From NCBI GenBank assembly GCA_032358255.1, contig JAULBX010002335.1, positions 62,001 through 126,000 of the forward strand: a stretch of DNA of 64,000 nucleotides. Direction: 5' to 3'. Position numbers and translations under genes: made by a program. Shown here in pieces: positions 1 to 60,429 of this stretch. This stretch comes from Heterotrichella gracilis (lineage: Eukaryota; Sar; Xanthophyceae; Tribonematales; Xanthonemataceae). The notes under the pieces are model-generated. The model was not told where the DNA came from. It saw only the letters and a list, made by a program, of their open reading frames with translations, and searched no databases. Every line of letters starts with the position of its first letter. Position 1 is the stretch's first letter.

Positions 1-1504
1 CTCTGCGAGGTCCGCTGGGCGCCTGGGTGGCGGTGACAAGGAGGCTGCTTCGCCTGTGCTTCCTCACATGGCCACGCAGAAGGAGGGGCGCCCGGACTGG
101 GAAGGTGGGTAAGCCCGTGTACTTATGGGTTTGTGGACATGCAGCATGCTTTGCATGATGGTGTATTTATTCAATTTCTCCTGTTTTGGGATCATTACCC
201 CAACTCCTATTCTGGGATCATTACCCCTGAACCCCTGTCTGTGTGTACGCACAGAAACCGAGGCCAGCGACGCAGCGCCGGCAGGCAGCGGAGCCCCCAA
301 CGGCCGCAGCCTGCGCTACAACAGCTTGAGTGACGACGGCAGGCGGAGCGTGCTGGTGCAGCCCTCCTCCTCTCCTGGAAACCCTAGCTTGCGCTACAAC
401 AGCTTGAGCGATGACGGCAGGCGCAGCATGCTGGTCCCGCCCTCGCCCATGACTGCAAACCCTAATTTGCGGTACAACAGTCTGAGCGACGATGGCAGGC
501 GCAGCATGTCGGCCACGCTGTCGCCCGCTGCTTCGGTGGATGTGCTGGGATCAGGTGGGCTTGGGGTTCAGGGGTTAGGGGTTCAGGGTGGATGTCCTGG
601 GATTGGGTGGGCTTGGGGTCTATGGGTCAGAGTGGATGTGGGTATAGAGAGCATGGGAGGATGGTCGGTGCATTTGCCAATGCATACCCACTGTGGAAGG
701 GAGGCATTTCACTCAGTTATTTACCGCTATGCTCCCCCTTATCCCTGAGCTAGTACCCTCCTATGTGTTTCCCGCCCCCTTGCTTCCTTCCCACCTCCAC
801 CCCACCTCACGCAACATACCCTGCGCAGGGTTTGGCTTTGGGCCCCCGCCCTCCCACCGGCGCAGTCACCAGCACCCAGGCTTTGGGCCTGCGGCAGCGG
901 CTGCTGCTGCTGCTGCTGCGCTCATGGCCACCCCCCTGCAGCTGCCCCCCAAGCACCTGTACACATGCACAGTGGGCCGCAACCGCTCGCAAGCAAGGTG
1001 CGTGTGCCGCCCTGAACCCTAAACCCTAGACCTTCGACTCTTAGCTACGCACATGCACAGTGGGGCGCAACCGCTCGCAAGCAAGGTGGGTGTGCCGCCC
1101 TGAACCCTAAACCTAAAACCCTAGGCTCTTATCTTCCAATTCACATGCACAGTGGGGCGCAACCGCTCGCAAGCTAGGTGCGTGTGCCGCCCTGAACCCT
1201 AAACCTAAACCCTGACCTGAAACCTCCTCACTTGCGCCATGGGTGGCAAAACCATGTGTTGCATTAGGCAAAGGACTGCCAGCACCCTCTCCAACACAGG
1301 CCACCCTCCCCTCCCACCCCTTGTATAATGTGGTCCGTAAGGGCTGCACTGGGACAGTCGATGTCTGTATGCGACAATCTGTCACAAGCGCATTGTGTTG
1401 ACCCCTCCTCCGCGCCTCCCCTTTGCAGGTACATGCTCCATGGGTCCATGGAGGTTGCGGAGCTGCTGCACGAGTTTACGCAGGGCATTGGGCCCAGGGT
1501 TTAG
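1..1504 (+). CDS. 5'-truncated gene with three LRYNSLSDDGRRS repeats (unknown function)
   Basis: Proposed exons are 1-104 (runs off the window), 255-554, 829-997 and 1429-1504; the phases agree at every junction. Exon 2 encodes three copies of a roughly 25-residue unit centred on LRYNSLSDDGRRS, separated by Ser/Pro-rich linkers. Exon 3 encodes a Gly/Pro stretch, an Ala10 run and VGRNRSQAR. The last exon encodes YMLHGSMEVAELLHEFTQG. The repeated RYNSLSDDGRRS unit is basic and serine-rich and resembles a phosphorylation or docking motif; that is inference, and no family was recognised. The end is uncertain. The reading frame stops at 1502-1504, but a GC donor near 1480 could splice in phase to 1879, which follows a very good polypyrimidine tract and encodes a Ser/Pro/Gln-rich stretch. 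Copies of the exon 3 end and of the last exon lie in the following introns or flank. Confidence 0.5.
962..1215 (+). repeat. Three tandem copies of an exon 3' end plus splice donor
   Basis: Copies start at 962 (the real exon end), 1051 and 1143, a spacing of about 90 bp. Each contains ACATGCACAGTGGG, CGCAACCGCTCGCAAG, a GTG donor, and then a CCCTGAACCCTAAACC tail resembling the telomere heptamer. Confidence 0.85.
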
Positions 1505-4633: not shown

Positions 4634-6108
4634 AGCAAAGGGCTACGAAGTGGTGGGCTCAGGCGCAAAACGCGTTTTGGTGATACAAATGTATGGGGGC
4701 AACAACCGGTGATCTAAACGTGTCGCAAAGGACGAACCAACCACAGCCGCCAGACAACAGGTACACCACAAGCCTACGACACCCTTGTTTTACACTTATG
4801 TTTGCTGTGTATCGATAGTCAGTTGGATCATTGGTGGGTGGGTTTCCATGTTTATGTAGCAAAACGCCGCCCTCAAAACAGTTTGAAGGCCTGTACTCGG
4901 CTGCCTGTGCTCGCCAACCAATCGGCTTTCCCCTTTTGCCAGCAGGCATGCAGCAGCTGCAAGGGACAACTTGTACGAAACCCATCTCGCTACTGGATAC
5001 GGACGACGGGGAGGGAATTGCGAGCAGGGTGACGTCAGTGGTGCCACCTGGCCGCTCTGAAACCGTTGAATAGCTACAACGGTTTCAGAGCGCCCAGGGG
5101 TGTTTAAAACCAGGTCCTGCTTAACACCCAGCAACTGGGTGGTACACCTCTAACAGTGGGCTGCAGAGTGGGCTGCAAGGTTGGTGCCCTATCGTTCACT
5201 AGAAAAATGTTCAAGCTGGACGTCGTGGTGGTGACCAATGGAGACGTAGAGACGTGCGTGATGTGTTGGTTCCTCAAAAGAGCTGCCACACTTGGGGTGC
5301 TGTTACAACATTACAAACCCTAATGAGAGGTTTCAAGATCTGCACAAGCAGACAATAAAGTTAATTCACAGCTGGGACAACAAGAATAAAGAATCAGAGG
5401 GAAAACTGGGGCGCGGGCGTCAAGGACTGGATTTTTGACCTAAAGGTGAGCTATCTTGTGGCTCCAAAAGCAAACACTCACACAGTCAATAATCAGTGTA
5501 CTTTGTGGCAGTGTCCTGTGCTCTCAAGTTCATGCGTTGTGGGATGGTGCACAGGGAAGCGAAAAACCCAGCGTGCGTTCTAAAAGGAAACCTCAAAGGG
5601 TATGCAGAGCTGGTATACAACAGCGGACCTTCACCAGACAAAAATCCGGAAGTGCACTGATAAAGTGCGTGGCAAAGGTCTGTCAGAACAGTGCTGTCAA
5701 TCCTGGACGACGCAGTGCGCCTGGTGTAAGTTTATTTGCGGGAAAACGACCAGTTTGTGTGGCAGACAGTATTCTTAGGCACAAAAAAGAAAAGCCCAGT
5801 CAAAACTTAGCAGTGTTCAGTGCAGTAGTTGTTTGTAAAAAGCAGTGGCACAAGAAAAACTGTTTGTTATCGGCTCAGGGTAATCGAGTCTACACTGTGG
5901 GGCTACCCTCACCTCTCACGCGCTATGGATAAAACTCTCACAGTACCAGTGCTATGCTGGAATGCATGCACCTACCTACCTACCTAACACACGACAGTGC
6001 ACCTAACAGGGCCGCACTCCTACATTCCGGCTCAATAAAACGCGCCGCTAGAAAAAAAGGCACCATACCTGCCCAAAGAAAACCCTCGCACAAACCCTCC
6101 GCCAGGGT
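4634..6108. other. Intergenic: DMP 5' flank and EXORDIUM-like 3' flank
   Basis: No supported gene. An open frame at 5456-5932 has no recognisable domain. The one distinct element is a hairpin at 5047-5098, listed separately. Confidence 0.5.
5047..5098. repeat. Short perfect inverted repeat (hairpin)
   Basis: The arms CGCTCTGAAACCGTTG (5053-5068) and its exact complement (5077-5092) flank an 8-nt loop. Pairing continues outward for about 6 bp with one mismatch. It lies between two genes. It could be a transcription-end or small-RNA hairpin, or a relic of a small inverted-repeat element; the sequence does not decide. Confidence 0.9.
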
Positions 6109-14095: not shown

Positions 14096-17083
14096 ATGGT
14101 GCGCCACAACAACGTCATCCCAAACCAGCACTTTAAGAAGAAGTGGCAGTTCTACGTCAAGACCTGGTTCAACCAGCCGGGCCGGAAGCAGAAGAGGCGC
14201 GATGGTGAGCCTCCCTTCCCTCCAAAACCACCTTTCGCTCCCATCTTTCCGCTCTACGGCGAGGTCTCATCCCCATGTCTCATTTCCCATTTCTGTCGTG
14301 CAGCCCGTGCCGAGAAGGCCACCAAGGTGTTCCCCAGGCCCGCCTCCGGCGCCCTGAGGCCCGTGGTCCACTCACAGACCGTCAAGTACAACAGCAAGAA
14401 GCGCCTGGGCAGGGGATTCACCCTGGAGGAGCTCAAGGTATGCCATTTTTCGCTCCATCCCATCCCCATGGCATCCATCCCAATGCATCCATATGCACCC
14501 GTAGCAGCATCAGCACCCGTCATGGTGGTATTTACTGTGGTTTGCTGGCCTGTATTTTGCAGGAGGCTGGTGTGCCCGCCAAGCTGGCGCCCACCATCGG
14601 GATTGCAGTGGACCACCGCAGGCAAAACCGGTCGCTGGAGGGTCTCCAGGTGAGGCAACCTGCACCCTGCACCCAGCCACACATGCACGCGCCACCCCCT
14701 GCGCAGCCCTTTCACAGCTTGCACCTCATAGCAATGCTACCTCCTGGCGCCTGGCAGCATGCGGCACACAGCGCGCAGCTACCCCAACAGCAGCCGGCAT
14801 GGCGATGGGTTGGTAGGGGTTTTCCAACCATGGGTGGAGCCCCAGGTTCAGCTGTCAGGACGGGCCAGGGGGTTGTGGGGAGTTGCGTGCACACTAGTCG
14901 ATGGGTGACAGCCGTCCCGCGCTAGTGGGCAGTTCTTGGTGGCAGCAGCACGCAGCAGCTGCGGGTATGGCTTCAGCAGCCCAGGCAGTTGTGATCAATG
15001 GGCAGTCAGAGGCGATGTGCAGATTTGAGTCACAGGAGCCTGTGCACGTGCACCCAGGCTCGTGGCTGGCTGGTACTGGCAGGGTCACTTTCAGCCAATG
15101 GCAGCCCTCTCGCCGCCAGTGCCACAGTGTTGCGCTGCCAGCCCAGCTGTTTAGGGTCTTTGGTGTGTGGTTTAGGGTTTGACAGTGTTGTGCCGCCAGT
15201 CCAGCCGCCAGCTGCACTGCCACCATGTTTACATCCCCCATGTACTTCAGCACACCATGCCACCCCCATGCATATGCAGCCAAGTGGTGCCTCCCACAAC
15301 CCATGCAGTTTGTTTCCTCGTCAAACCACTTGCGTCCCAACAGCATACGCTTGAGGGTTTCTCCCGCACACCCCGCCCTGCACAGGGACGTTGCCCGACC
15401 AAACCCATACCACAGCCTGCTGGTCCCCTCCCCTGAATCCTTAACCCCAAGCCCTAAACCATAAACCCTCCGATTCCCGCTCCGCAGGAGAATGTTGCCC
15501 GGCTGAAGGAGTACCGCAGCAAGCTGGTGCTCTTCCCCCGCCGCGCCAACAAGCCCAAGGCGGGCGACTCCACCGCTGAGGAGCTGGCCACCGCCTCGCA
15601 GCTGACCGGGAAGCTGATGCCCATCACCGGCGTCAAGCACGTGCTGGAGAAGGTGGCGCTCACGGAGGACATCAAGGTGAGCAGCGGAGGGTTTGGGATT
15701 CTACTTGTAGGGTTTAAGGTTAGTTTATTCTATAGTTTGGGGTTTAGGATGCGTTGGAGAAGGTGGCGCCCACGGAGGACATGAAGGTGAGCAGGGTATA
15801 CTGGGTCTAGTGCTTTCCCCCTTCATTTTTGGGTTTCAGGTATGGGTGCGTTGGAGGTGATGTCGCTGACAGAGGACATCAAGATGAAGAGGAGGCTTTG
15901 GTGGACTGCTTGGAAGTCAGGTTTAGGTTCCAGGGATTTGAGGTGCACCGGAGGAGGTGGCACAGATGGGGGACGAGAGGGTGGTGTGGCGGTAGGGTCT
16001 AAAGGGGTTAGGGTGCACCAGCAGGCTGCTGCCCATCACTGGCGTCAAGCAGGGGCTGGGCAAGGTGACGCTGACGGAGGGCATCAAGGAGAGCAGAGAG
16101 GGTATGGGATGCTACTTTAGTCCATATTAGGCCTGGGGTTGAGGGTGCACTGGACAAGGTGGCGCTGACGGAGGGCAATCAGGGGAGCAAGAGGGGCATG
16201 GTATCGATAGCATGGATATGTAGGGGTTGTCAAGGTGCAGTAATGGGTGTATCGACTAGGCAGCGGGGGTTTTGGAGGAGGGAGGGGGTATACTGCAGGG
16301 GGGTATTGTATGCGCCAGGGTGGCAAGGGCTCCGGCACTGGTTGCGGGTGTGGGGTGCGTGTGGGGGTATTAGGCCGATGTATGAAGTCCTAACCACTGG
16401 CAGGAAGCCTTGGCTCTTGTACGGGGGTGAGGTACACCCAGGCATGCCTGAACCATGGATGAGGATAGATGGATTAGACTATGGCTTTATAGCTGGAATG
16501 CAGATGCATGCGTATGGGGCCAGTTTAATAGAGCATCCCAGGAACGCATGTGTTCTTGACGCACCCCTCGCCTAGGGGAAAGCCTGCTGCTGAGGCAGGT
16601 CATGCACCCGTTTGCTTTGTTAGGGTCAGGTTATAGGGTTGGGGAGGTGGTGCTTGGGGGGTGGGGAGCGGTTTTGGTCCGTGTGTGCATATTGGCAGGG
16701 ATGTGGGCGGTGGGGTGGAAGGGGGGAAGCCAAGGACTGGGTGGCTACGGGCAGCACCTTGAGTGTGGGTGGTGCGGCATGTGTGCGGATGGTACGGGTG
16801 CAATCAGCAATTGCAAGTGCAGGCACGCATGGGCCGTTGCATTGCAGTCCACGCTGAGCATGCGGCCAGTGCGTTGGCGTTCGCTTCGACGTGTGCTTTA
16901 CACGGTCCATCAGCGATTGTTAGATTGTTGTGTCCAACCGCCTCTTTACCCACCCCCTCACCCGCTGCGCAGTCCAACAAGGCCTACTACACCCTCCGCC
17001 TGGAGCGCGTGAACAAGAAGATGGCTGGCCTCAGGGCAAAGAGGGCGGCAGAGGCGGCAGCAGAGGACAAGGACAAGGCATAA
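14096..17083 (+). CDS. RPL13: 60S ribosomal protein L13 (eL13)
   Basis: Exons are 14096-14204, 14304-14437, 14563-14649, 15488-15676 and 16973-17083, all phase-consistent, encoding 209 aa, the family's normal length. The protein is a cytosolic large-subunit component. Near-universal eL13 motifs appear in order: [92 protein letters not shown] and a Lys/Ala-rich C-terminus ([14 protein letters not shown]). The fourth intron is very long (1,296 bp) and carries four decayed copies of the 3' end of exon 4. No frame damage is seen. Confidence 0.97.
15749..16195 (+). repeat. Four decayed copies of the RPL13 exon 4 end
   Basis: The real exon end ([11 protein letters not shown] plus a GTGAGCAG donor, ending at 15676) is followed in the intron by copies at about 15749-15797, 15847-15890, 16021-16095 and 16146-16195. 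The third copy also includes the upstream LLPITGVKQ part. The copies diverge progressively, and only the first keeps a GTGAGCAG donor. Confidence 0.85.
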
Positions 17084-17200
17084 GCGCCCAAGTCCCTGGT
17101 CGCCTCTCGAGCTGTTTGCTGGGGCTGTTGTGTGCTTTGATTGTGGGCACCCACGGGGTCTCCTTGGTGTGATTGTGATGGCGGCTGTGGCAGCTGTGTG

Positions 17201-17224: not shown

Positions 17225-17227
17225 CTG

Positions 17228-43000: not shown

Positions 43001-46000
43001 TCTTTTCTCACTTTATCCTATCCCCATCCCCAGGTTGTTGCCATCCCCGAGGGCCTACCCCTTGCAGTGACGGTGGCCCTGGCCTACTCAGTCAAGCGCA
43101 TGCTCAAGGACAACAACCTAGTCAGGCACCTGGCGGCGGCTGAGACCATGGGCTGCGCAACCACCATCTGCAGCGACAAGACAGGTGGGTAGTGTGGAGG
43201 GGGGAGTAAGGGAGGAGGTGGTGGGATAGGATGTGGGGATGTGATGAGGGTGTGTGCCTGGATGTGGGGTTTATAATAAACCCATGTGCATGCTCAAAGC
43301 CAACAACCTAGTCAGGCACCTGGCTGCAGCTGAGACCATGGGCTGTGCAACTACCATCTGCAGCGACAAGGCAGGTGGGTGGGGTGGGATCAAATGTGGG
43401 TCACGTAGTGGACAAGGTTGTGGGCATGTGGTGAGGATGGGTGGTTGGAGTGGGGTCATAGATTAGGCTCATGTGCATGTGTAAGGACAACCACCTGGTC
43501 AGGCACCAGGCAGCAGCTGAGACCATGGGATGTGCACTACCATCTGCAGCGACAAGGCAGGTGGGGTTAATGGGGGTTGGGGGGTAGGGAGCGGGCTGGG
43601 AGGGTGTGAGGGGTGGCCTTAGGAGCCCATCTTTCAGGTATCAGGGTTTACGGTTTGCTTCTGACACCCCACCCCATCTCTCAGGCGCCCTCACCACCAA
43701 TGAGATGACTGTGGCCAGCGTATGGATCAGGGTTTTGCGGTTTTAGGGTACTGTATTAGGGTTTTAGGTTGTTCTTATGACCTCCCCTTCCACCACCCCC
43801 AGGCACCCTCACCACCAATGAGATGACTGTGGCCAGCGTGTGGGTGGGTGGCAGGCAGTGGCAGCGGCAACAAGGGGGGGGCGAGAGCACCACCGCAAAC
43901 GGGAACGGCTCGTCTGCCGTGGCGTGCAGCGATTGGGCCGCTATGGGGGTAGCGCAGGAGGTGCAGCAGCTGTGCTTTGAGGGGATTGCTGTGAATGCCA
44001 CCGCCAGCGTGAGCCGGGATGAGGCCACAGGTGGGTGTTAAGATTTTGGGCTTAGGGTTTATGGTATGCTGTGAATGCTGCTTGAAGTGTGAAGGGGATG
44101 AGGTGGCTGATGGGATATGGTAGGGGTTGGGGTGCAGCGATTGGGCGGTCATGGGGAAGGCGCAGGAGGCGCAGCAGCTGTGCTTTTGAGGGGATTGCTG
44201 TGAATGCCACCGCCAGCGTGAGCCGGGATGAGGTCACAGGTGGGGTTGTAGGGTTTGGGCTTAGGGTTTATGGTATGCTGTGAATGCTGCTTGGAGTGTG
44301 TAGGGGATGAGGCAACAGGTGGGTTTTGGCGGTGGTGGGTTGGGGTGGGGCGTGGGGCATGGGTCATCGTCGTGAACGCAATAAATGGGGGTGTGGGGTT
44401 CATGTGGGGATTTGCTGTGAATGCGCCGTTGCATGCAAGGTAACTAACGCACGTCCACACCCCTGGTCCAAAGCCCAGTAAAGCCTGCTCAACCCCTTAC
44501 CAATAACCGCGCACTTACAGTGCACCGCTGCCGCGGCTGGCATGACAGTTTACTCGGGATTGCAGGCACCTGCGCTTCCAAACCCTACCCTTCACAGCCC
44601 TTTCAAGCCCCAACTCGTAACCCAATGCAACCCCCATCCCAAATCGAGGGGACGAAGGTCGAAGCCAATTGCAACCCCAATCCCAAACATCCAATCTTTA
44701 AAAACCCCACCATTTGACATCATCCCCGGGATGCAGGTGAGCTGACCAAGATCGGCAACCGCACCGAGTGCGCGCTGCTGCAGCTGGCATTGGAGTGCGG
44801 GTGGGACTTCAGGAGCCTGCGGTCGCGCAACAGCATACTGCGCCTGTTCCCTTTCTCATCGGAGCGCAAGCGCATGTCAACCCTGGTGCAGCCGCAGGCG
44901 GAGCCAGGGTACGGGGTTGGGTGAATGGTTTGGACGGGAGGTTGACGGGGTTGTTATTTTCTAGGACAGCATGCTGGGCCTGTTCCCATTATCATCGGAG
45001 CGCAAGCGCTTGTCCATTTTGGTGCAGCAGCATGCGGAGTCTGGGTAAGGGCTTGGTGGCGCCCTGTCGGAGCGGGGTGGTGGGGTTTTCTGGTAGCATT
45101 TAGGGTTTTTGTTTTGGTACGGGGGCATGAGATTGCAAGCGCCTGTGCTTTTGCAACACCATGCTGCGCCTGTTTCCATTCTCTTTATTTTGCGAGCGCA
45201 CATCCATGCTAGTGTGCCGCAGGCGGAGCGATGGTAAAGGATTTAGGCTTTCAAGTCCAGGGGAGACCCCACCAAGGATCTTGCACTTCACGCAACTGGA
45301 AGGATGGATAGGATGCACCCTCCATCTGATGTTGCACAAGTGCACGACCACAGCCTAGCGCCCCACCGAAACCCTACCATGGGTCCTGACCACTCTCCAC
45401 CTCGTCCACCTCGCAGGTCGCCTCCCCCTCCCCACGCCCGCCTGTTCACCAAAGGCGCGCTGGAGCTGGTGCTGGCCACATGCACGCACAAGATGAGTGT
45501 GGATGGGGAAGTCGTGACACTGAGTGAGGATGATAGGCAGAGGCTAATGGGGCGATATGCAAGCAGCAGCAGACGGTGAGCAAAAAAAAATGTTGGGAAA
45601 TGATGGTTGGATAAGTACTTGCAGGCATTGGGAAACACGCTTGAACCCTTTGGAGCCACCTTTGAAAACCATTGAATGCCCTTGAATGCCCTAAAAGTCC
45701 TCGGGGCTGGGTGAGGAGGACAGGCATAGGGTGCTGGGCAGGGACACAAACAGCAGCAGGCAGTGCGGGAACCACGGAAAACACTCTCTAAAGAAACTCT
45801 GCAATTACTCTTCAAAAACCCTAGCCAGTCTCGCACCACCAGCCGCAAACTGCGCCGCAAAATTTCACCCAACCCACCCCACTTTCCGTGCAGCATCCTG
45901 TGCCTGGCCTACCGGGACCTCCCCGCCCCCTCCCACTCCTCCCACCCCCTGGACTACGACAAGGTTTCGGCTGTGGACATGGAGCGCGACATGACACTTG

Positions 46001-48558
46001 TCGGAATCGCGGAGCTCGAGGACCCGCTGCGCCCAGAGGTGCCAAACGCCATCAGCCAGTGCCAGCGGGCGGGTATAACAGTGCGAATGCTCACGGGGGA
46101 TAACCTTGCGACTGCTACCAGCATTGCCCGCCAGTGTGGCATTCTGCCAGCAGGTGTGTGTTGGTGGGAGGGTGGGGAGTCGGGGTGGGTTGGGTGGAGG
46201 GCTGGAGTGACTGCAACTGCGTACTGATGTCAGATGGCGGGTGGTTATGGAGGGTTAGGTGACAGTATGTGTGGGTTGGTGGGGAGTGGTGAGCGACAGT
46301 ACCCCTGTCCTTGTGATTGTGAATGTAATTGTAGTAATATTATGTCTGTAACCCTTGCCTGTGGTTTTGATGCAGATGCCAATGGCAGCGCGCACCCTTC
46401 TGCTGCAATGGAGGGGAGGGAATTCAGGAGCCGGGTTTTGGACCCCAATGGGCGACTCATCCAGGCGGAATTCGACAGAATTTGGCCGCATTTGAGGGTC
46501 ATGGCACGGTGCTCACCTACCGACAAGTACATCCTGGTCAAAGGTGAGGAATACCCTTGAAAACTGTACGAGGTGATTCTGTGTTGGGACACTATCGCGT
46601 ACCTGGAATTTTGTGTGCTAATGTTCATTCAATGGGTCATTTCACTCTAAAGCAGATTCCAACAACCCCCCCTGCCTGTTGTTTGTAAGCAAATTATCCT
46701 TTGCTGCTGAAGACCACTCCCCTTCACCACATCCGCCGCTAAACCCTGTCCCTCAAACCCTGAACCCTACACCCCCGCCCGCAGGCGTCAAGGGGAAAGA
46801 GATAGTGGCGGTGACAGGGGACGGAACCAACGACGCACCCGCCCTACGGTTGGCGGACGTGGGCTTCGCCATGGCCTCGGGCACCTCCATTGCCAAAGAG
46901 GCCTCTGACATCTTACTGCTTGACAACAACTTCAACAGCATTGTGTCTGCGGTGAAGTGGGGCAGGAATGTGTATGAGGGGACATCCAAGTTCCTGCAGT
47001 TCCAGCTGACCATCAACATCGTGGCGGTCACCACGGCGTGCATAGGTGAGTGGGTGGAAGTATTCAGGGGAGAAAGTAGAATAGAATGCTAGAATTCAAT
47101 CGGGTGCTTCTTGTAGGAAATCACTGGGGGGATTATACAGACGGGGAGGCGCTGTCTGCGAAGGATTTGATGGTGGTCTCATGTTGTCTTAGCGTGCCAC
47201 TCCCAGTGTCATTTTGGCCACCGACTTTCCCTTGCACAAAATACAGCAGCATCCTTCGTACCACCTCAACAGAAATTCCTGATTTTGCAATTTCTCCCCT
47301 TTGCAGGCGCCCTCACGGTGCAGGAGTCCCCGCTCACCGCCGTCCAAATGCTGTGGGTCAACCTCATCATGGACTCCCTCGCATCCCTCTCCCTGGCCAC
47401 CGACTCCCCCACCGACGCCCTCCTCGACCTCCCCCCCTACTCGCCCCAAGACAGCCTCATCACCCCCACGGTGGCCAAGCACATCCTGGGCCAAACCATA
47501 TACCAGCTCGGGGTGATGTATGCGCTGGTGTTCCACGCGCCGGGGATTCTGGGGGTCCCCGCGGCGAATCTGATGGAGGGCCCTTCGCAGCACTACACCA
47601 TGGTGTTCAATGCGTTTGTGCTGATGCAGCTGTTCAACCAGGTCAACTCAACCAAGATCCACGACGAGGCGGACGTGCTCAAGGTAAAAAGCTTTCCGAT
47701 CCGAGTGATCAGGGGGGGAAATTGTGGTATATTTGGTGGGGAGGGGTAATCAAAGAGTTGTTGGAGGTGATGTTGTGTAATCATGCTGATGCAGCTGTGG
47801 AATCAGGCCAACTCAGCCAAAATTCACGATGAGGTGGACGTGCTCAAGGTGAATGTAGTGCGATCAGGAGGGTTATTGTGGTAAAAAAAAAAAAAAAAAA
47901 GGGTGAAGCCCTACGCGAGACGGGTAATTTTGGGGACGAACCCGAGGAGGCATCAGCCGCGAAACTGTGCACCCTTTAGCTAAGCAACCCATCCAGAAAG
48001 TGACCCTACGTCAATCCCAGGTGAGCAGTCGAGCGGGTACTAATCCCACCGACTATACCTGAAGGGCCAATTTAATGGCCTGGGTGCAGGTGAACTTGCG
48101 CTATGAAGCTCGCTAGGAGGGTTATTGGGGTGTACCTTTCCACATTACAAATAAATCACTCCTTTTACTAACATTACCACAATAAAAAAAATGGGTTGTA
48201 GATACAGTGTAATCAGATGTGGACATAGGAGCGTGCACCCATTGCAACACACCCACACTACCACCCACCACCCACACCCACCACCCACTGCCCACAACCC
48301 ACACAAACCCCATACCTCACGCAGGGTCTGCTGGATAACCCGCTATTTGTGGCAATCCTGGGTGGGGAGCTGCTTTTACAGGTGCTGATCGTGCAATTTG
48401 GGGGCCTGGCGTTCATGACCACCCCCCTGACCGCCCAGCAATGGGCCGTTTGTGTGGGGATTGGCGCCGGATCCCTGGTGGTGCGCCAAGTTTGCCGGGG
48501 AGTGCCGACCGTGGAGTGGAGTTTTCTGAAGCGGGCAGACGCCAAGGGCCGGGGGTGA
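40078..48558 (+). CDS. Type IIB (PMCA/ACA-like) Ca2+-transporting P-type ATPase
   Basis: Fourteen phase-consistent exons: 40078-40340, 40806-40985, 41331-41461, 41979-42185, 42482-42680, 43034-43184, 43803-44030, 44737-44908, 45417-45575, 45894-46153, 46376-46543, 46785-47045, 47307-47683 and 48325-48558, about 996 codons. Motifs in order: first two membrane spans ([25 protein letters not shown]), GDILPADGV and MDESHLTGE (actuator domain), [19 protein letters not shown], the phosphorylation site [20 protein letters not shown] (nucleotide binding), [10 protein letters not shown], and [12 protein letters not shown] with [36 protein letters not shown] and [11 protein letters not shown] are typical of PMCA. 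It pumps Ca2+ out of the cytosol. The C-terminus ends soon after the last span ([13 protein letters not shown]), so no long calmodulin-binding tail is seen. The start is unresolved. Many introns carry exon-edge copies. Confidence 0.93.
40686..41070 (+). repeat. Copies of both edges of Ca2+-pump exon 2
   Basis: A decayed copy of the exon 2 start (GCAGGCTCGATCGCGGTGGT) with its acceptor lies at 40683-40735 and runs into a stop. A copy of its end (AGGGAGCTCAAGTCGCTTGA) lies at 41031-41070. Confidence 0.85.
41519..41585 (+). repeat. Copy of Ca2+-pump exon 3 end plus donor
   Basis: The GGGACATCCTGCCGGTGGAT to GGGCACAATATACGGTAAGG segment repeats the exon 3 end ([17 protein letters not shown] plus donor) with few differences. 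It could be used as an alternative donor region. Confidence 0.9.
42728..42795 (+). repeat. Copy of Ca2+-pump exon 5 end plus donor
   Basis: GGGAGTACCTGTGCACCTAC through ATCACATTGCTGGTGAGGG repeats the exon 5 end and its donor. Both the original and the copy are followed by GGGTTTTGGG-type sequence. Confidence 0.9.
43283..43570 (+). repeat. Two copies of the Ca2+-pump phosphorylation-site exon end
   Basis: Copies at about 43283-43380 and 43470-43566 repeat the last ~95 bp of exon 6 and its GTGGG donor. The first still reads [20 protein letters not shown] but has SDKAG in place of SDKTG; the second has a frame shift. Neither has an acceptor, so both look non-functional. Confidence 0.92.
43684..44430 (+). 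repeat. Copies of both edges of Ca2+-pump exon 7
   Basis: An upstream copy of the start (acceptor plus [12 protein letters not shown], 43684-43735) would give DKTGALTT rather than DKTGTLTT if spliced. Downstream, copies of the exon end lie at about 44060-44110, 44127-44245 (longest, includes [17 protein letters not shown]), 44272-44325 and 44404-44430. Confidence 0.9.
44963..45240 (+). repeat. Two copies of Ca2+-pump exon 8 end
   Basis: At 44963-45047 and about 45150-45240 the segment encoding [20 protein letters not shown] is repeated with increasing decay. The first copy ends in a GTAAGG donor. Confidence 0.88.
45700..45765 (+). repeat. Short copy of Ca2+-pump exon 9 end
   Basis: GAGGACAGGCATAGGGTGCT through CAGCAGCAGGCAGTG resembles the exon 9 end (GAGGATGATAGGCAGAGGCT to CAGCAGCAGACG). 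Confidence 0.6.
47762..47855 (+). repeat. Copy of Ca2+-pump exon 13 end plus donor
   Basis: The segment encoding [21 protein letters not shown] is repeated as a decayed version (CAGCTGTGGAATCAGGCCAA to GACGTGCTCAAGGTGAATG). Confidence 0.92.
47866..48130 (-). mobile_element. SINE-like insertion flanked by a 13-16-bp direct repeat
   Basis: AGGAGGGTTATTG occurs at 47866-47878 and 48115-48127; extended to 16 bp the match has one difference. Between them lie an 18-A run (47883-47900) and about 210 bp of sequence unlike the surrounding intron. Read on the minus strand, the insert ends in oligo(T) next to its target-site repeat and contains GGGTTCGTCCCC, weakly resembling a Pol III B box (inference). 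This fits a T-tailed SINE in antisense orientation inside the pump's last intron. No second copy is visible in the window. Confidence 0.55.
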
Positions 48559-49774: not shown

Positions 49775-52700
49775 CTAGGGTTTCTTAATCTGGACCTCCT
49801 CCGGCACCCCCACCGCCTTGGCCGAAGCCGCCCACAGCTGCGCAGAGGCCTCTGCTTGGTAGCTGGGTGGCACCGAGGGGGTGAGCAGGGTGCGCGACTG
49901 GAAGCGGCCTGAAACAGGGAGGGGAAAACTCAGGATTATGTGGGGAGCAGGGTATACATGGGCCAGGGCTCCGGATGCGGTGCATGAGTTACCACCATTA
50001 GCTGCACCTGGTGCATGTTTCAATTAATTGCCACATGGAACATGCTTCGCAAAGTGTGAGTAGCGTTCTACAGGGTGCATGCTGGACGAAAAGTGAGTGT
50101 ATCCTAGGGTGCATGCACAAGGGTTTCTAAGAGGGTCCCAGCAGTGCCTTCAGTCAAGGGCGATGCCAAGGGATCCTTGAGGACTTCCTCGCATCTCCGG
50201 TCAGGCATGGACACAACCAGCCATTGGCCAAGCACACAGCATCACGGTGCTGCTGTACCCAGCTAAGGGAAGTTAGGTCATTTCCCACACCAGCGCCTTC
50301 TGCCGAGCGTTCCCCGTTGGCTGCAGGTTTCCTCGGAGTTTTTGCACATCTCCGGTCAGCCAGCGGCAGGCCATAACCACCACCTTTTCTTAGGGTTTCC
50401 CCGAGGTTTTTGTAGGGTTTCCTAGGGTTTGGACACACCTCCGCTCAGCCAACGGCATGGGTAGTCCATCACCGAGCACACAGCAGCACCCGCCCCCCAC
50501 AGCCCGGCTTGCAGGCGGCTCATGCGTGTGGGCTCCACCCCTGGGAACCACCACATCGCCTGGGATGCAAACAGGCCCCGTGCGTAGAACTGGAAAAAGC
50601 AGGGCAGGGGCTGGTATCAGAGGCGTAGGTGGGTCATGGGGTACCTAATGCGCAATCCAATACCCTACTTGATGATCATCGCAGTTTCCTTACAGGTTTA
50701 GGTGCAAAAACAGCTCCAGGCACCTTGAAAGGCTACCAAGCAGGGTTTAGGGTTTCAAGCACGCCTTGAGCCAATCACTGTGTGGAGCACATCTACAGTT
50801 ATTGATGGTGAAATCACTATGTTATCAAGGTCACAACTGAAGTAACTAGACTGTGCGGTAAATCAGTACACCTACACTGTGCGGCATGAGATGCAACCAC
50901 GGCATATTGTGGTGCAGCATGGGTTCTCAGGTATTTACCCGTAGGTCGTCCTCCGGTGCCTGCACCCCCTTGTTGCCGTTGCTGGCCCCCACTTGCGCCC
51001 TCCCTGCCCTCCTGCACCACAGAGGAATACCCACATGATCAGGCACCACGGCTGATAAAAATATATTGTATAAACAACTTGTGAATGTGGTCGAGCGCAA
51101 GGGCGAGCGCAGGGGCCAATTCCATTTGACGGAATGAGCATGTACTGTATACCACGCTCATGATGTGATGCAGTCAATTTGCCAACAGCGTTAAAAATCA
51201 CTGTAATCTTACACACGGTATACCATTATCTGGGAAAGTACTGTCATGTGCAGGCGCTACCTGTGGTGCAGCTGGGCGCTCCTGGGCGCCTCCTATCCCA
51301 TGGCACGATCTTGACCAAGTTGTTTTTGTTCTACAAACTATCAGTGACACCCTGTGTGACCAATACAAAGCCCACTCATCCTGACCAATTCCTTCACAAG
51401 GCACAGGCATTACCTGTGGTGCAGTTGGGCGCTCCTGGGCGCCTCCTTTTCCCATGGCACAGTTGCTGCGTGCAGCACCGCTTGGGCGCCATCCAGCGGG
51501 GGGGCGTAAAACGCGTCCACGATCCAGCGCAGGGGGGGTCGGCCAAATGCTGAGCGCTGCCAGATGTTGGAGCGCACGCCACCGGGGTCCACAGCCACAG
51601 ACTGCATGGGGTGAAGATCAGGGTTTAAATTGGGTCTGGGTTAGGGTTAGGGTGTGGGCTCGGGTAAGGGTTTGGTCAGGATTTGGATCCTCAGTCAACG
51701 ACTTGCCCAGGTTGTGGGGTGTAGGGTTTGGATTTGGAGTATACTCCGGGTTTTTATTGGGGTTTGGGTGCCAGCCATGCCTGGACCTGGGCCTGACTGG
51801 CAAAATCATCAGAACTTTCAAAAAGTACAGGACCAGCGATAATCAGCTCAAGCCATACATTCTATAGACTTGCCATGCATGGTATCAAAGAAAATAATGC
51901 AGCATTAATGTGGTTTGTGTATTTGTAGGGTAACCCCCGCCCGTTACATCAACTCTCCCTAACCCACCACCCACCCGCACCCCGAATCTGCCCAACTGCC
52001 CGCAGCATCTCACATACCTACACATTCAACAGCTTTGCCCAGACCCCCTTCAACTAGACCGTAACCTCTCCACAACCAGACTTGAGCAACCACCACAAAC
52101 ACCCCACCTGAAATACAACCGTGCCCCACCTACCCACATCGCACACCACTCACCATCCCGCACCCCGCACCCACCTGCACTCCCAACCTGCCCAGCCGCC
52201 GCTGCATCTCATATGCCAAAAACACATTGCACAGCTTGGTGGTGGAGTAATTGCTGCCCCCCCGCCAGCTGGACAGGAATTTCTCCCCCTGCAGCGGGCA
52301 GGGCACCCTCCCCACCCTGTGCATGATGGATGACACATGCACCACCCGACAGGGGGAGGAGGATACTAGCTTCTGCTCTAGGAGGCGGGACAGGTGGTAG
52401 GGTCCAAGGTAGTTGGTCTGCGGGGCACACAGAAGTGTGAGGTTTAGGAAGAGCCTTAGGATTAGGTTTAGGGGTTGTCAGAGAATTCCCTCCCTTGAGA
52501 TGGGGCAAGGCACCATCCCCATCGTGTGCATGGTTGATGACACATGGGCATGCACCACCCTGCAGGGGGAGGAGGATACTAGCTTCTGCTTTAGGAGGCG
52601 AGACAGGTGGTAGGGTCCAAGGTAGTTGGTCTGCGGGCACAAGGGGTGTAGGTGAGAAAGGACAGGTAGGGTGAAGGTAGGGTAAATGTTACTGACTGTA

Positions 52701-54876: not shown

Positions 54877-57800
54877 ATGGCAGGCCTCAGGACGCCTCTG
54901 GCGTTGCTGCTGCTGGCGGTCAGCATTCAGCTGGCATCAGGTACTACCACCGTTGGACCATGTGTGTGCGTGTCGTGCCCGATTCCTAGGCGATGTCCCG
55001 ATCGACCAGGGCCCAGCAGCCGTATTTCCCCATGTTGCGAGGTCAGTGCGGCCCCGACACCGTCCGACCGTTTTCTGCAGCGCTGACTTGCAGCCTGTCG
55101 GCACCCATGTGTCCAGCATCCAACGTGGTTCGGTACGAAACCCGGCGTCTACCCACAAACTGGATCCACGCTACATATGCGTTCAAGGTCGAGGCCAGTG
55201 CAGGGTTGCCAGCAGGCGTCTGGTGGCGCCTGTCTATAAGTGAACCTTCGGCCCATGTGGTCTGCCAAGCTGGCACCCATGGGCCTGCACACCTGGCCAA
55301 CGCAAGGCATCCCTTGCTACGGTCTGCACTGCACTGCGACCCGACTGCTTTTTTACTGTTAACATAGGCAGGCGTCACGTTTCGGGTCGTAAAGGCAGCA
55401 ACAGGAGCACCGAGTGAAAATCGTGATGTGCGGATACACCCATCATACAGGCGGTACCAGATGGGTGTGAGGCACATGACATGGAGGTAGGCCATAGGCG
55501 CTCGCTAAACAGGACCAAACAGCGGGTTAAAGACAGTTGCGTCGCAGAACGCGCCACACACTCTGCTTGCCTTGAAAAATGCGCTTAGTCATGCAAACAC
55601 CCAGCTGTTGATGCAACCAGGGGACTGAGGTCCCCCACCGCCGCCACATCCCTTGTCGAAACCCTCCCCACCCACTACCTGGCCCCCTTGACCCTTCCCT
55701 CGCCCCCGCAGCCCGCCGCAGCCTGCTCCAAACCGATATGGTGACCATGGCGATGGGCGACCCGGTGGTATCCTGCCCCATGGTGGAGATGCTTGCAAAC
55801 TCCAACTCGTCCATCTGGAGCCCAGAACTGAGCGACAAGCTGCACGCGGGGTGGACCTACTACACGGATGAGCAGCCGCTTGGAGACGTGAGTGGCTTGC
55901 CAGGGTGCACTGTTGCTTTTGCAGAACCCTTGACAAAACCCTAATGAGTGCACAATGGTCAACCTTGAGTAGGGTAGCAACAGCATACCACCGAAGGTGC
56001 ACTAATGGGTAGGCACTTGAGGTGTGCATGGCTGCCAAAAGTACCCTGGTAAGTGAATGCATAACTACAGTGCTGCGCCAAATACCCTTAACCACAAACC
56101 ATATTGGTGACATGCCTTGGTTGAAATTCCCCGCTGGTCATACCCTGAGTAGGGTACTGCACTGGAGTAGGTCATGCCCCGATGTACATCCTTGCCCTTG
56201 AGGTTCAAAACCCCAACCTCTCGGCATTTCCCCACCACTCCACCAACATCGGCAACCTGCGCCTGCCCGCCAAAACCCTACAACCGACCCTACAGTAACC
56301 CTGCCATGGCCTACTACAGGGATCATGCCGACGGGCTTCATTGAATTATGTAATAGCAGCGTTCATTTGGTTGCCTTTATTATCTTACCTTCACTTCCCT
56401 TCATTCTCCTGCCATTACCCTTCTCCAGGGCCTGCTGGAGAGCTTCAAACGGGTCTGGAACCTGCTTTGCAACCCTGCCCAAACCCTACAGCAACCCTAC
56501 AGTACCTCCAATCTGTCGCTGTCCTTTGACCCTGTTGTGCTCCTACCGCAGGGCATGGTGAAGACCTTTATCGAGTTCTGGAACGGCACCGGCACCTGCT
56601 TTGGCCCCCAGTCCATTGGTGTTGACATCGACATGTCAGTGTTCACATCGCTGCCCAACATCAGCCAGGTGCCGATCAAGCCAATGTGCATGTACGTACC
56701 CTACAAACCCCCTGCAAGAAACCCTAATTTGCCTCTAAAACCTAGCAAGTGCACAAGCACCTGCTTCAAATCCCAATTCGTCAGGGCATTTCTGCTGCAT
56801 GTCCAGCAGCAAATATTGTTTACCAGCTTACCAAGGTCTCAAACCCTAAACCCTTTCGTGTACATGGGCGCCAATGGCAAGTAGTTTAAAGCAGACCTTG
56901 AAGCAGATGCCGCTTGTGGCAAATGCACAAGGGCATCCTCACCGAGATCCTAAACATGTACAGTCTACGCCAAACCCTAGCTTCAACCCTAGCCGCTTGC
57001 GTGTGCAGGATGGGCCCCGATGGCAAGGAGGTTTGCCAGGGCATCTACACAGAGAACATGGACCTGGAATTCCCCTCTGAGCTGGGTGCTTTCTCCCCCT
57101 TCTCATTTGTCAGCTTCTGGTGGAACCCAGAGGGGCACCAGCCAGAGGGTGCGCACCGAAATACCCTAAACCCTAAAACCTGAAATGTGCATATTCCACC
57201 GAGCTGGGTGGCTTGTCCCAATTATTATTTGTTGGTTTAAAGTGGAATCCAAAGGGGCACTAGCCAGAGGGTGCGTGCAGAGACCCTATACCATAAATGT
57301 GCATTGCTCACTTGCGCGCCAGAAAACGCCAGATCAGGAAACCCAAGACCCTGAACCTGCATCTAGGGAGGCATCTGCCTGGGGTGCGCGCCAGCTAGGA
57401 TTCTTTACCCTATATCTGCAGTCCCCTTCTCCCCCTTCTCATTTGTCAGCTTCTGGTGGAACCCAGAGGGGCACCAGCCAGAGGGTGCGCACCGAAATAC
57501 CCTAAACCCTTGTAGGTAATTGTGCACTGCCCCCCACATGAAAGTCGTCACCCCCAGACCCTACACCAGGGTTGCTGACCCTTTGTCCTTCACATGGAAA
57601 CCCTAAACCCTAATCCTTGCTCCCTTTTCCCGTGCAGGCGGTACACCTTCCCGCACATAGACATCCACTTCTCCATGGAAACCCTGAACCCCAATCGTTA
57701 CACCCCATACCCTAACCCCTAATCTTCCTTCCCTCCCCTGTGCAGGCGTATACACCTTCCCCCACATGGACATCCACTTCTACCTGTCGTCCATGGATGA

Positions 57801-60429
57801 AGTGCTTAGCATCCTGCCAGGTAACAACCCAACAATGCACCCTAATAAGGGTCAACAACAGGGGGGTTTCACTGCCAATCTGGCTGTATCGCCGGAACGC
57901 ATACCGCGGTATAAGTAAGGGTCAACAGCAGGGGGTTTTGAGGACAACGGAGGGCCCCTTGCGATGCACTGTAGATGGGGAGGGGTTTGTTCCAGACACT
58001 AAGGATACAGCAAAGGACATGGGGGGCTGTAGCGTTTACCAGGGCGTACCTGAACTTGGGGCCACCGCGCTACCTGTGCAGCCCCCACTTCTTTGCTACC
58101 GCCCTACGAAACTCTATCCTAGGGCCTCTGCCCTGCACAAAACCCTAATAAAGGTCTTCCCTGTGCAGGCCCCTGCAGCGGCCTGACCAGCAGCTTCCTT
58201 GCTACCGCCCTACAAAACCCTTATCCTAGGGTGCCTGCCTTGCACAAAACCCTAACTTAGGTCTTTTCTGTGCAGGCCCCTGCCGCGGCCTGACCAACGA
58301 CTCGTTCACCATTGCCAACGAGGCCATCCCCAAGCAGTGCTTCCCAACTAACTCACCAGCCAGCAACATCACGTACATGAACGTGGGCGAGACGGTGCCA
58401 TTCGTGAGTGTACCCTAGATCTAAACCCTGAAACCTAGACCCTAAACCCTGCACAAGCCAGAAACACCTCCTACATGAATGTGGGCGAGGCGGTGCCAAT
58501 CGTGAGTGTGCTCGACCCTTCTTAGACCCTAAATCTGAAACCCTAAAACAGACAGCAATACCTATACCAAAACGTGGGCAAGGCAGTGGAATCCATGAGT
58601 GTCCCCTTCCCTCCTTAACTACTTCAGAAGGAAAGCGAGAGGAGACATGCCGGCGCCACACACGGCGGCACTCCATGGATCACCAATGTTATAATAGATA
58701 GACGGCCAGGACAGCAACTAGGAGAGCATGGCGTGGGGCAAGGGCATGATTTCTTGCATTCATTCCAGCAATGCAGCCAAATCGGCAGTCAAGGTTGCAC
58801 CCTTGCACACGTGGCGCCAAGCGATTTGGTCCTGGCACTGTTTATGCCATTCGAGTTTTGGCGGAGTGGCCTTTTTCCTCAGCCACTTGTCGTGCTGCCT
58901 TTTAAGCAGCTGTGCAGCACCCCAAGCAGCACAGCTGCACCCCACGGTCCTACCCTCACAAAGGACCTTGTCCCCCTTTGCACATGACCTTCTACCCTTG
59001 CTCATGCACATTCAGCCCCTGACAGTTGTCCCTCCTGACATTACCCTCCCTCCTCCACCACAGATGGGCAACCAGATGATCAACACCATTTTTTTGGGGT
59101 AAATTCTAACCCCTAAACCCTAAACCATTACCCCCCTCCCCACCCCACCCCCGCAGATGGGCAACCACATGATCAACACCATGGGCCCAGAGTTTGACCC
59201 CGCCAACGACTTTGGGGTCAGGGGGTTCAATAACAGCATCTTGTACAACACCTACGGGGGGCAGGTGATCGGCGTGGAGGCCATGCCCACAATCAAGTAC
59301 CTTACGTCAGGTTGGTGGGGAGGAACCCTACACTCTAAACCCTGCTTCACATTTGTGGTGCCTTGGTGTGTGCCACTGGCCCCCTGACTCCGCCTCTGTA
59401 CATCCCTTTGTTTCGCTTTTCGTTCTTCCTTGGGTGCGTGGGTATGGGGCCCTTGGCATGAGGGAATGGCTGAATTCCCTCTCACTCTGTCTCTTCCTCA
59501 ACCTGAACGCCCTCGTACTTGCCACGACCTGGCTACCTTCTTTTCATTGGATTCCAAACCCGTTTTGTCTCTTCACACCGCAGGGGTGGAGGTGTGCAAG
59601 ACCCTCCCCGGGCGGCCCAATTCGTGGGCCTTCACGGGGTTCAAGCCCACCACCTACTGCGTCCTCACCCTGGATGACGTGGTGAGGGTGTCGCTCTCCA
59701 AGTTCCTGTGGTGCGTGGCAATGGAAAACCCTAAACCCTGCTTAGAACCCTAAGGGTCAAGCCGCTGTTTGCCCAGAATCGCTGTTGCCGTCCGCAAATG
59801 ACGACCCAGACCATGGAAACCCTGCGCCCACCACCTGCAAGGCTGCGTAGGGTTTGTGTGTTGGGGTTTGCTGTGGGAACCCTACATAAAACCCCTAGCT
59901 TCCATGGGGACCACCACCTATAAGGCTGCTCCTGTTGCTCGTCTACATGCTTTACAGCAATGCAGCCACAGTACCAGTCTGCTTGACATGAGCCACCAGT
60001 GGTGTTAATCCTACAACCCAGGAATCCTTCCTAATTATGTAGTACACACACCTCTGATCATTTTCCAATCAGCAGCACATCGCTTCCATCCCCTCCTGCC
60101 TCCTGCATGGTACGATGCTGACCTAACCTGCCAGGACCCTAACCAAACCCTAAACCCTTAACAATCCCCCCCTGCCCCCGCACAGGTATGATGCTGACCC
60201 AGTCTGCCAGGACCCCTCAGGCCGCCCCCTGGCCGCATATGCCCCAGATTCCCTGGCGGTCTCCACTGAAATTGTGCCCACAGTGCCCCCCTTCTGCGTG
60301 CTCCCAGAGCCAAATGTGCCCTTCCCCCCACCCCCTATGCCCCCCACCATGCCCCCCCCAAAGCCCAGCCACCCCCCACCCACCATGAAGATGATGCCGC
60401 CCATGGTGCCCAAGAAGATGACGGGGTAA
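54877..60429 (+). CDS. Secreted TTHB210-like / DUF5602-like domain protein
   Basis: Exons are 54877-54940, 55712-55887, 56552-56691, 57009-57148, 57746-57820, 58276-58403, 59157-59310, 59584-59710 and 60186-60429, phase-consistent, giving 415 aa. The start encodes a signal peptide (MAGLRTPLALLLLAVSIQL) followed by ARRSLLQ. The core reads GMVKTFIEFWNGTGTCFGPQ, SFVSFWWNPEGHQPEGVY, TFPHMDIHFYLSSMDEVL, VPFMGNHMINTMGPEF and FNNSILYNTYGGQVIGVEAM. The WNPxGHxPxGVY-xPHxDxHFY and MGxH...PEF patterns match what I know of the TTHB210-like domain; the biochemical role is unknown. Six cysteines and NxS/T sequons fit a secreted protein. The C-terminus is Pro-rich (PPPPMPPTMPPPKPSHPPP). Introns carry copies of exons 4, 5, 6, 7 and 9. 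Confidence 0.7.
57200..57510 (+). repeat. Two copies of the TTHB210-like exon 4 end
   Basis: The exon 4 end and its donor region (57090-57172) recur nearly exactly at about 57423-57508 (SPFSFVSFWWNPEGHQPEG again encoded) and in degraded form at 57200-57275. The near-identity of the second copy, including the intronic CACCGAAATACCCTAAACCC, shows a recent event. Confidence 0.93.
57639..57690 (+). repeat. Acceptor-side copy of TTHB210-like exon 5
   Basis: GTGCAGGCGGTACACCTTCC then CACATAGACATCCACTTCTC copies the exon 5 start (GVYTFPHMDIHFY) with a base missing and a stop. Confidence 0.9.
58160..58605 (+). repeat. Copies of both edges of TTHB210-like exon 6
   Basis: The exon start is copied at about 58160-58200 (GCAGGCCCCTGCAGCGGCCT). 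The exon end is copied twice after the exon, at 58461-58510 (TACATGAATGTGGGCGAGGC with donor) and 58550-58605 (more decayed). Confidence 0.9.
59063..59105 (+). repeat. Acceptor-side copy of TTHB210-like exon 7
   Basis: CACAGATGGGCAACCAGATG then ATCAACACCAT repeats the exon 7 start (MGNHMINTM), then breaks into a T run and a stop. Confidence 0.92.

What the first reader, a model, noticed from the sequence alone, without database searches (positions are those of the whole stretch)
1..60429. Serial copying of exon edges with their splice sites into adjoining introns
In at least eight unrelated genes (first gene, COX10, RPL13, coiled-coil gene, YGGT, Ca2+ pump, SDR, TTHB210-like), 30-130 bp of an exon edge plus the splice donor or acceptor is repeated one to four times inside the flanking intron. 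About 35 copies were counted by eye. Donor-side copies lie downstream of the exon and acceptor-side copies upstream, so each is a local tandem duplication across the splice site. Many end in TTTAGGG/CCCTAAA-like motifs. Ages range from near-identical (57423-57508) to barely recognisable. This suggests a recurrent process that lengthens introns by duplicating exon-intron junctions, perhaps primed by the telomere-like heptamer.
Basis: partly seen in the sequence, partly recalled or inferred. Interest (0 to 1): 0.8.

Follow-up and report, generated by a model that had tools for sequence, protein, structure and literature searches.

The report
Exon-edge copies filling algal introns
In this green alga, the ends of coding exons are repeatedly duplicated into the neighbouring intron, where the copies decay as junk; it happens far more at coding edges than in other non-coding DNA and may be a way in which introns grow.

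Summary
In the window plus 250 kb of two other contigs (314 kb, 0.46% of the genome), 95 of 875 predicted splice junctions have a copy of their own exon edge in the flanking intron. A more sensitive test finds 124 of 718 usable junctions, against 0.1% for other introns and 0.3% for the reverse complement. Copies are direct repeats; 38 of 95 nearest copies are full tandem duplications, 57 share only the exon edge and some intron. They evolve neutrally.

Comparing neutral intron tails only, junctions exceed intergenic DNA 6- to 13-fold and intron-only duplication about 4- to 14-fold. Stop-codon edges carry copies as often (10 of 47), so the target looks like the coding edge, not the splice site. 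Telomere-type heptamers are strongly associated (odds ratio 5.5), but priming by them is not shown.

Best reading: recurrent break-associated duplication at coding edges, filtered by selection, with longer introns as a likely result. Why coding edges are preferred is unknown. No description was seen in ten paper searches of one open-access library.

The parts
962..997 (+). Exon edge (donor side) that is copied, first gene
1050..1213 (+). Match to exon edge 962-997 and its intron part, spanning two repeat units (d 88; exon-part identity 0.97), with telomere-like tails
1142..1205 (+). Intronic copy of 962-997 (d 180; 0.94)
15755..15794 (+). Copy of eL13 (RPL13) exon edge 15645-15676 (d 110; 0.94); further degenerate copies to 16204
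24141..24188 (-). Copy of acceptor-side edge 24042-24086 (d 99; 0.87); the gene model here is short and uncertain
31506..31585 (-). Copy of donor-side edge 31666-31697 (d 112; 0.84)
31831..32122 (-). Two overlapping matches to acceptor-side edge 31716-31866 (d 92 and 190; 0.89 and 0.86)
37986..38081 (+). Copy of acceptor-side edge 38201-38279 (d 198; 0.94)
40625..40728 (+). Copy of acceptor-side edge 40806-40848 (d 120; 0.91), Ca2+ pump
41519..41579 (+). Copy of donor-side edge 41404-41461 (d 115; 0.91), Ca2+ pump
42726..42814 (+). Copy of donor-side edge 42626-42680 (d 100; 0.85), TTAGGG-rich spacer
43288..43591 (+). Two matches to donor-side edge 43092-43184 (d 190 and 376; 0.92 and 0.85)
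43638..43725 (+). Copy of acceptor-side edge 43803-43843 (d 118; 0.95)
44128..44367 (+). Copy of edge 43920-44119 (d 212; 0.88)
44966..45056 (+). Copy of donor-side edge 44830-44908 (d 136; 0.84)
45153..45236 (+). Older copy of 44827-44908 (d 325; 0.74)
47784..47853 (+). Copy of donor-side edge 47619-47683 (d 165; 0.86); genome-wide only these two places match
51251..51306 (-). Copy of donor-side edge 51414-51460 (d 153; 0.96)
51956..52035 (-). Copy of donor-side edge 52175-52237 (d 200; 0.80)
52556..52641 (-). Copy of acceptor-side edge 52343-52417 (d 213; 0.95)
57201..57297 (+). Older copy of donor-side edge 57079-57148 (d 122; 0.77)
57427..57510 (+). 100% identical 84-bp copy of 57091-57174 (d 336); the genome search returned only these two places
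57600..57672 (+). Copy of acceptor-side edge 57746-57781 (d 108; 0.91)
58088..58189 (+). Full tandem copy of acceptor-side edge 58276-58296 with its intron part (d 107; 0.95)
58452..58617 (+). Copy of donor-side edge 58354-58403 (d 98; 0.84)
59052..59089 (+). Copy of acceptor-side edge 59157-59182 (d 93; 0.96)
60088..60139 (+). Copy of acceptor-side edge 60186-60215 (d 76; 0.87)

Best explanation
Recurrent small duplications at the edges of coding exons. SHOWN in the sample: a stretch of mostly 20-100 bp of exon edge with its splice site (or stop codon) reappears in direct orientation on the non-coding side, 70-220 bp away for 90 of 95 nearest copies. In 38 of 95 the whole repeat unit is tandemly duplicated; in 57 the spacer is not shared. 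The copies show no coding constraint. 22 of the 95 junctions have two to four copies. The density is several-fold above the same class in non-coding DNA away from coding edges. INFERRED: breaks in or beside coding DNA are repaired by fill-in and end joining, which duplicates the overlap of a staggered break and sometimes adds spacer sequence. Selection keeps only duplications that leave one intact exon edge with working splice signals, so the spare copy ends up non-coding and drifts, and the intron grows. Telomere-type tracts are either filler added in some of these repairs or are favoured afterwards because they suit splicing. Why coding edges are preferred is not explained.
For: Excess and orientation: 208 direct against 9 inverted pairs, none in one shuffled window. 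Own exon edge against own intron 124 of 718, other introns 0.1%, reverse complement 0.3%, exon interior 10 of 490. Neutral copies: difference rate by codon position 0.097, 0.096, 0.193; in complete tandem cases the aligned intron part differs by 0.158, about twice the 0.096 and 0.072 at codon positions 1 and 2, as expected when both sides drift. True tandems: 38 of 95; alignments of chosen cases. Spacing: 90 of 95. Coding-edge bias: uniform placement expects about 108 intron-only and 74 intergenic arrays; seen were 4 to 7 and 3. With intron tails alone the excess is 6.0- to 13.4-fold over intergenic and, dividing the expectations by 4 to 7, 3.7- to 14.4-fold over intron-only. Stop codons 10 of 47. 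Tracts: odds ratio 5.5, p 3e-14; coverage 22.7% in the tail next to the real junction, 14.6% in the tail after the copy, 5.9% beyond.
Against: No sequence of a close relative was available, so no empty site was seen, and no break was observed. Gene models are ab initio, and 54 of 548 predicted exons were relabelled as intronic copies by a rule that uses the duplications themselves. If all 20 intron-intron pairs are counted instead of the 4 to 7 arrays outside exon-edge arrays, the tails-only contrast with introns falls to 1.3- to 2.9-fold; the intergenic contrast is not affected. In 57 of 95 cases the spacer is not shared, and intron tails align far less often than my neutral simulation predicts (17% against 81% for 36 tails of 75-150 bp), so simple tandem duplication is not the whole story. 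Mismatches in the exon part are slightly clustered (p 0.007), which hints at some gene conversion. Identity does not fall significantly with distance from the exon, as serial copying would lead one to expect.
Confidence: 0.6

Rival explanations
1. Duplications arise uniformly along the genome; coding-edge ones are only seen more because the constrained exon keeps them recognisable for longer.
For: Exon parts do diverge about half as fast as neutral pairs. Real neutral tails are harder to align than simulated ones. If all 20 intron-intron pairs are counted, the tails-only contrast with introns is only 1.3- to 2.9-fold.
Against: With simulated detection power 0.86-0.88, 108 intron-only and 74 intergenic arrays are expected against 4 to 7 and 3; 10 of the 20 intron-intron pairs lie inside exon-edge arrays and one more is exon-derived. 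Tails alone still give 6- to 13-fold over intergenic DNA. At window score 70 or more, 47 of 1182 junction windows against 16 of 4552 intergenic windows.
Confidence: 0.15
2. Telomerase or telomere-repeat homology drives the process: a broken end carrying TTTAGGG/CCCTAAA primes copying of the adjoining exon edge.
For: P(copy) 0.252 with a tract within 60 bp, 0.057 without. Tract in the junction-side tail only in 21 events, in the copy-side tail only in 5, in both 34. At 11 joints with an abutting run the exon bases continue the repeat by 1.27 nt on average against 0.375 permuted (p 0.0006; inflated by chance extension of the alignment). A telomerase RNA-binding domain is encoded.
Against: 33 of 93 events have a tract in neither tail. 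Runs do not end at the joint more than at random points of the tail. 2 of 7 stop-codon cases read have heptamers. A tract-primed mechanism should copy deep-intron sequence as often as exon sequence (inference).
Confidence: 0.2
3. The tract association is a splicing effect: CCCTAAA supplies a branch point and pyrimidine tract at acceptors, and G runs help donors, so duplications with such spacers survive.
For: At acceptors the tract is almost only in the CCCTAAA orientation and peaks 20-50 nt upstream of AG, where a branch point would lie (recalled). Copies start at least 30 bp from the junction in 94 of 95 cases. Introns without copies also show a weaker peak there.
Against: CCCTAAA is also enriched at donors with copies. 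Copy-side tails, which need no splicing function, are still enriched (14.6% against 5.9% beyond). One intergenic duplication has a tract between its copies and not after the second.
Confidence: 0.35
4. Old tandem copies are kept similar by gene conversion from exon to copy, so exon-edge arrays outlive others.
For: A 100% identical 84-bp block at 57427 lies beyond a 77% copy at 57201; slight mismatch clustering (p 0.007).
Against: In complete events intron-part divergence is about twice codon-position 1-2 divergence, as with a single age; longest identical runs are not significantly long (p 0.096).
Confidence: 0.15
5. The copies are alternative or decoy exons kept by selection.
For: GT is kept in 60 of 75 donor copies and AG in 43 of 48 acceptor copies; identity at these positions (0.89-0.97) is above that of most adjoining intron positions.
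Against: The codon-position pattern shows no coding constraint on copies; spacing shows no excess of multiples of three (38 of 123).
Confidence: 0.08

Closest known systems
Small tandem duplications made by CST-guided Pol alpha-primase fill-in at breaks with 3' overhangs (PMC8355091, abstract and discussion read)
   Same: Direct small tandem duplications that need no sequence repeat or homology; CST, the complex involved, also acts at telomeres (recalled).
   Different: There: induced breaks in mammalian cells. Here: an evolved, coding-edge biased pattern in an alga; breaks, CST and polymerase were not shown (Stn1 search inconclusive).
Short interstitial telomeric sequences inserted during double-strand break repair (PMC7215372, passages read)
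   Same: Short telomere-type tracts at internal sites, sometimes with duplication at the target (3 of 66 horse loci as the only change) and bases in register with the repeat.
   Different: That paper finds the share of human loci in introns compatible with random insertion; here tracts are concentrated near junctions and tied to exon-edge copies.
Intron gain by tandem genomic duplication (PMC4974935 and PMC3443670, search listing and start of abstract only)
   Same: Tandem duplication inside a gene involving splice-site sequence.
   Different: The copies counted here lie inside an existing intron and carry both exon and intron sequence.
Introners (PMC9860276, search listing and start of abstract only)
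   Same: Change intron content in many genes of one genome.
   Different: Introners are families of dispersed elements; here copies match their own exon edge and hardly ever another gene's intron, and two tested units match only their own locus.

Membership tests
Small tandem duplication by fill-in end joining | Direct, adjacent copies with no long homology at the joint | tested here: inconclusive
   Direct orientation met; 38 of 95 complete, 57 of 95 with an unshared spacer; exact joints blurred by divergence
Small tandem duplication by fill-in end joining | Dependence on CST and Pol alpha-primase | not testable with these tools
   Needs mutants; the Stn1 profile matched neither this genome nor the control genomes
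Interstitial telomeric sequence inserted at a break | Repeat identical to the organism's telomere | tested here: met
Interstitial telomeric sequence inserted at a break | Absent from the empty orthologous site | not testable with these tools
   states that this genome has no relatives here
Intron gain by tandem genomic duplication | New intron bounded by the two copies of an exonic AGGT segment | tested here: inconclusive
   123 of 129 counted copies lie in the same intron, which does not fit; but copies whose junction fell in a predicted exon, where such cases would show, were dropped before that count
Introner | Similar sequence shared by many introns | tested here: not met
   Own edge 124 of 718 against 0.1% in other introns; two units match only their own locus genome-wide
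Duplicated alternative exons | Copy under coding constraint | tested here: not met
   Codon positions 0.097/0.096/0.193 over 123 events

The most novel reading that the evidence does not exclude
A mutational process aimed at coding-exon edges, coupled to telomere-repeat addition at repaired breaks, is a main engine of intron growth in this algal lineage: each round pushes an older exon-edge copy deeper into the intron, so much intron sequence may be decayed exon edge plus telomeric filler.
Probability: 0.25. Interest if true: 0.85.

Novelty: new variant of a known kind. Interest (0 to 1): 0.6.

Why it matters
How introns grow other than by transposon insertion is poorly known. Here one may be able to watch it: neutral exon-edge copies of graded age sit beside their constrained source, so many junctions carry a dated record. 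The coding-edge preference is large and not explained by detection bias as far as I could test, which points to a break or repair bias tied to coding DNA. The telomere-repeat link connects intron growth to end repair, or else shows that telomeric sequence is readily used as a splicing signal. Practically, such copies mislead gene finders: by my rule, 54 of my own 548 predicted exons were such copies.

Tried and rejected
Uniform duplication with longer survival at exons: disfavoured, not excluded for introns if every intron-intron pair is counted. My first power estimate (0.86-0.88) was too kind, since real intron tails align less often than simulated, so one search was made with tails only. 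Window counts without age correction agree in direction: at score 45, junction windows 10.5%, intron windows outside exon-edge arrays 1.7%, intergenic 1.1%; counted over all introns, intron windows are nearly as rich as junction windows (9.0% at score 45), since they include the copies. GC content as cause: exon-edge GC is equal at junctions with and without copies (0.625 and 0.627). CpG depletion as an exon-specific cause: depletion is found in exons, introns and intergenic DNA alike (0.47-0.61). Junction-centred breaks: for spacings of 70-135 bp the exon share of the unit rarely exceeds 0.6, but unshared spacers make this ambiguous. Decline of identity with distance from the exon: weak and not significant (Spearman -0.12, p 0.17). 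Dispersed element: rejected. Assembly error: not tested with reads; copies differ by about 12% on average, which an error would hardly give, except for the 100% pair. Rfam and bacterial-code tRNA scans of the window found nothing. Ten paper searches gave no description of the phenomenon in the listings I saw, all in one open-access library.

Full report
Setting. The window is bases 62001-126000 of contig C26 of a 68.5 Mb, 903-contig genome. The best-scoring named relatives of its COX10-like protein are trebouxiophyte green algae, such as Nannochloris (62% identity) and Chlorella sorokiniana (68%); that the organism is a trebouxiophyte is an inference. I added 200 kb of contig C2 and 50 kb of C46, 314 kb in all, about 0.46% of the genome. 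No relative of this genome is held, so everything rests on one assembly.

Gene models. No annotation exists, so I trained a gene-finding hidden Markov model on the 314 kb. It recovered clear splice signals (donor CAG|GTGAGT-like, acceptor TGCAG|G) and 548 exons. It also called many intronic copies as exons. I relabelled 54 predicted exons (15 + 33 + 6) as intronic when each lay almost wholly within a copy of a longer predicted exon. This rule uses the duplications themselves and is a weakness; other false short exons remain, for example in RPL13. Two outside checks agree with it. Against solved eL13 structures the predicted protein aligns up to residue 215 and resumes, weakly (E 0.0023), at 280, so the stretch with the two relabelled exons 15748-15786 and 16025-16101 is not matched. 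Against a plasma-membrane Ca2+ pump, residues 350-468 lie between two aligned stretches and hold second versions of segments that precede or follow; the printed alignment was cut before the end.

Is it there? Direct repeats of at least 40 bits within 1 kb number 208 against 9 inverted; one locally shuffled window gave none. At 45 bits there are 171 pairs: 105 exon-edge/intron, 22 exon/intron, 20 intron/intron, 5 exon/exon, 3 intergenic/intergenic and 16 mixed. Mapping these to junctions gives 95 of 875 with at least one copy: 57 donors and 38 acceptors. Rates per stretch are 23 of 182 (window), 62 of 562 (C2) and 10 of 131 (C46). A more sensitive test of 60-bp exon edges, restricted to 718 junctions with exon of 45 bp and intron of 100 bp or more, finds 124 (17.3%) at score 28, against 0.1% for another junction's intron, 0.3% for the reverse complement, and 10 of 490 for exon interior. 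Two units searched genome-wide match only their own locus.

What the copies are. In 123 events the copies differ from the exon at 9.7%, 9.6% and 19.3% of codon positions 1, 2 and 3. That is what a freely drifting copy beside a constrained exon should show. In the 38 complete tandem cases the aligned intron part differs by 15.8%, about twice positions 1 and 2 (9.6% and 7.2%) and like position 3 (15.5%). In the other 57 the similarity covers the exon edge and part of the intron, with an unshared spacer. Real intron tails align much less often than simulated neutral pairs, so spacer insertion or rapid spacer turnover must be added to plain tandem duplication. Of the 95 junctions, 22 have two to four copies. 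The nearest copy is 70-220 bp away in 90 of 95, and begins at least 30 bp from the junction in 94 of 95. Introns with copies have a median of 455 bp, others 283 bp; 10.4% of intron sequence lies between a junction and its furthest detected copy.

Is the coding edge special? Placing units at random, with simulated detection power of 0.86-0.88, predicts about 108 intron-only and 74 intergenic arrays. By category 20 intron-intron and 3 intergenic pairs were seen. Of the 20, 10 lie inside exon-edge arrays, 3 only near one, and 7 are apart; of these 7, one (RPL13, 16056) is exon-derived on reading and the other 6 are 4 arrays. So intron-only arrays number 4, or 7 with the 3 neighbours. Because the simulation flatters neutral pairs, I repeated the comparison with only those junction events whose intron tails are detectable by themselves. 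The excess over intergenic DNA is 6.0- to 13.4-fold; over intron-only DNA it is 6.4- to 14.4-fold with 4 arrays and 3.7- to 8.2-fold with 7. With all 20 pairs it would be 1.3- to 2.9-fold. The Poisson values treat events as independent and the expectation as exact. At stop-codon edges 10 of 47 have copies, at start codons 2 of 39, none in the reverse-complement control. Seven stop-codon cases were read; that each has a stop codon follows from the model, so these gene ends need independent proof. If right, the target is the coding edge and the splice site is carried along. Fewer copies at starts would fit selection against upstream start codons (inference).

Telomere-type tracts. The organism's telomeres appear to be CCCTAAA repeats: exact eight-fold arrays occur in 11 contigs, 6 on the + strand near the start and 5 on the - strand at high coordinates, and a telomerase RNA-binding domain is encoded. 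The heptamer covers 3.7% of introns, 0.55% of shuffled introns, 1.4% of intergenic DNA. Between a junction and its copy it covers 14.3%, against 3.75% at the same offsets in introns without copies. Junctions with a tract within about 60 bp have copies in 58 of 230 cases, others in 37 of 645. Coverage falls from 22.7% in the junction-side tail to 14.6% in the copy-side tail and 5.9% beyond (93 events). This fits filler added at the joint, with older filler carried along, but selection for splicing signals near the true site could give part of it. At acceptors the orientation is almost only CCCTAAA, 20-50 nt upstream, a plausible branch point (recalled). Against a driving role: 33 of 93 events show no tract, and runs do not end at the joint beyond chance.

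Mechanism. The anatomy fits recurrent repair of breaks at coding edges that duplicates the overlap and sometimes adds filler, followed by selection and drift. Published work shows that small tandem duplications arise by CST-guided fill-in at breaks with 3' overhangs (PMC8355091, abstract and discussion read), and reports telomeric repeats inserted at breaks in mammals, with duplication as the only flank change in 3 of 66 horse loci (PMC7215372, passages read). Neither reports a coding-edge pattern in what I read. Which enzyme acts here, and why coding edges are hit, is open.

Novelty. Each ingredient is known; the combination, its density and the coding-edge bias were not seen in ten searches of one open-access library. 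I file it as a new variant of a known kind.

Noticed in passing
window 308-541: In-frame coding repeat of 78 bp (2.6 copies by TRF), the first two units ending in AAACCCT; 4 of the 5 exon-exon duplications in the sample have spacings divisible by three.
   Followed up: partly
window 61569-61744 and 63517-63692: 176-bp direct repeat, 82% identical, 1948 bp apart, outside the exon-edge pattern.
   Followed up: no
L009-L028 joined (C2:200001-400000), 108634-108748: Intergenic tandem duplication with a TTTAGGG-type tract between its two copies and not after the second.
   Followed up: partly
whole 314-kb sample: CpG is depleted in exons, introns and intergenic DNA (observed/expected 0.61, 0.47, 0.56), with TpG and CpA excess, which suggests widespread cytosine methylation.
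   Followed up: no
L009-L028 joined, 5363-5679 and 22470-22708: Intron-only arrays of three units of 93 bp and 78 bp with no match to nearby exons.
   Followed up: no
window 25799-25859: About ten perfect copies of the hexamer AAGTAT.
   Followed up: no
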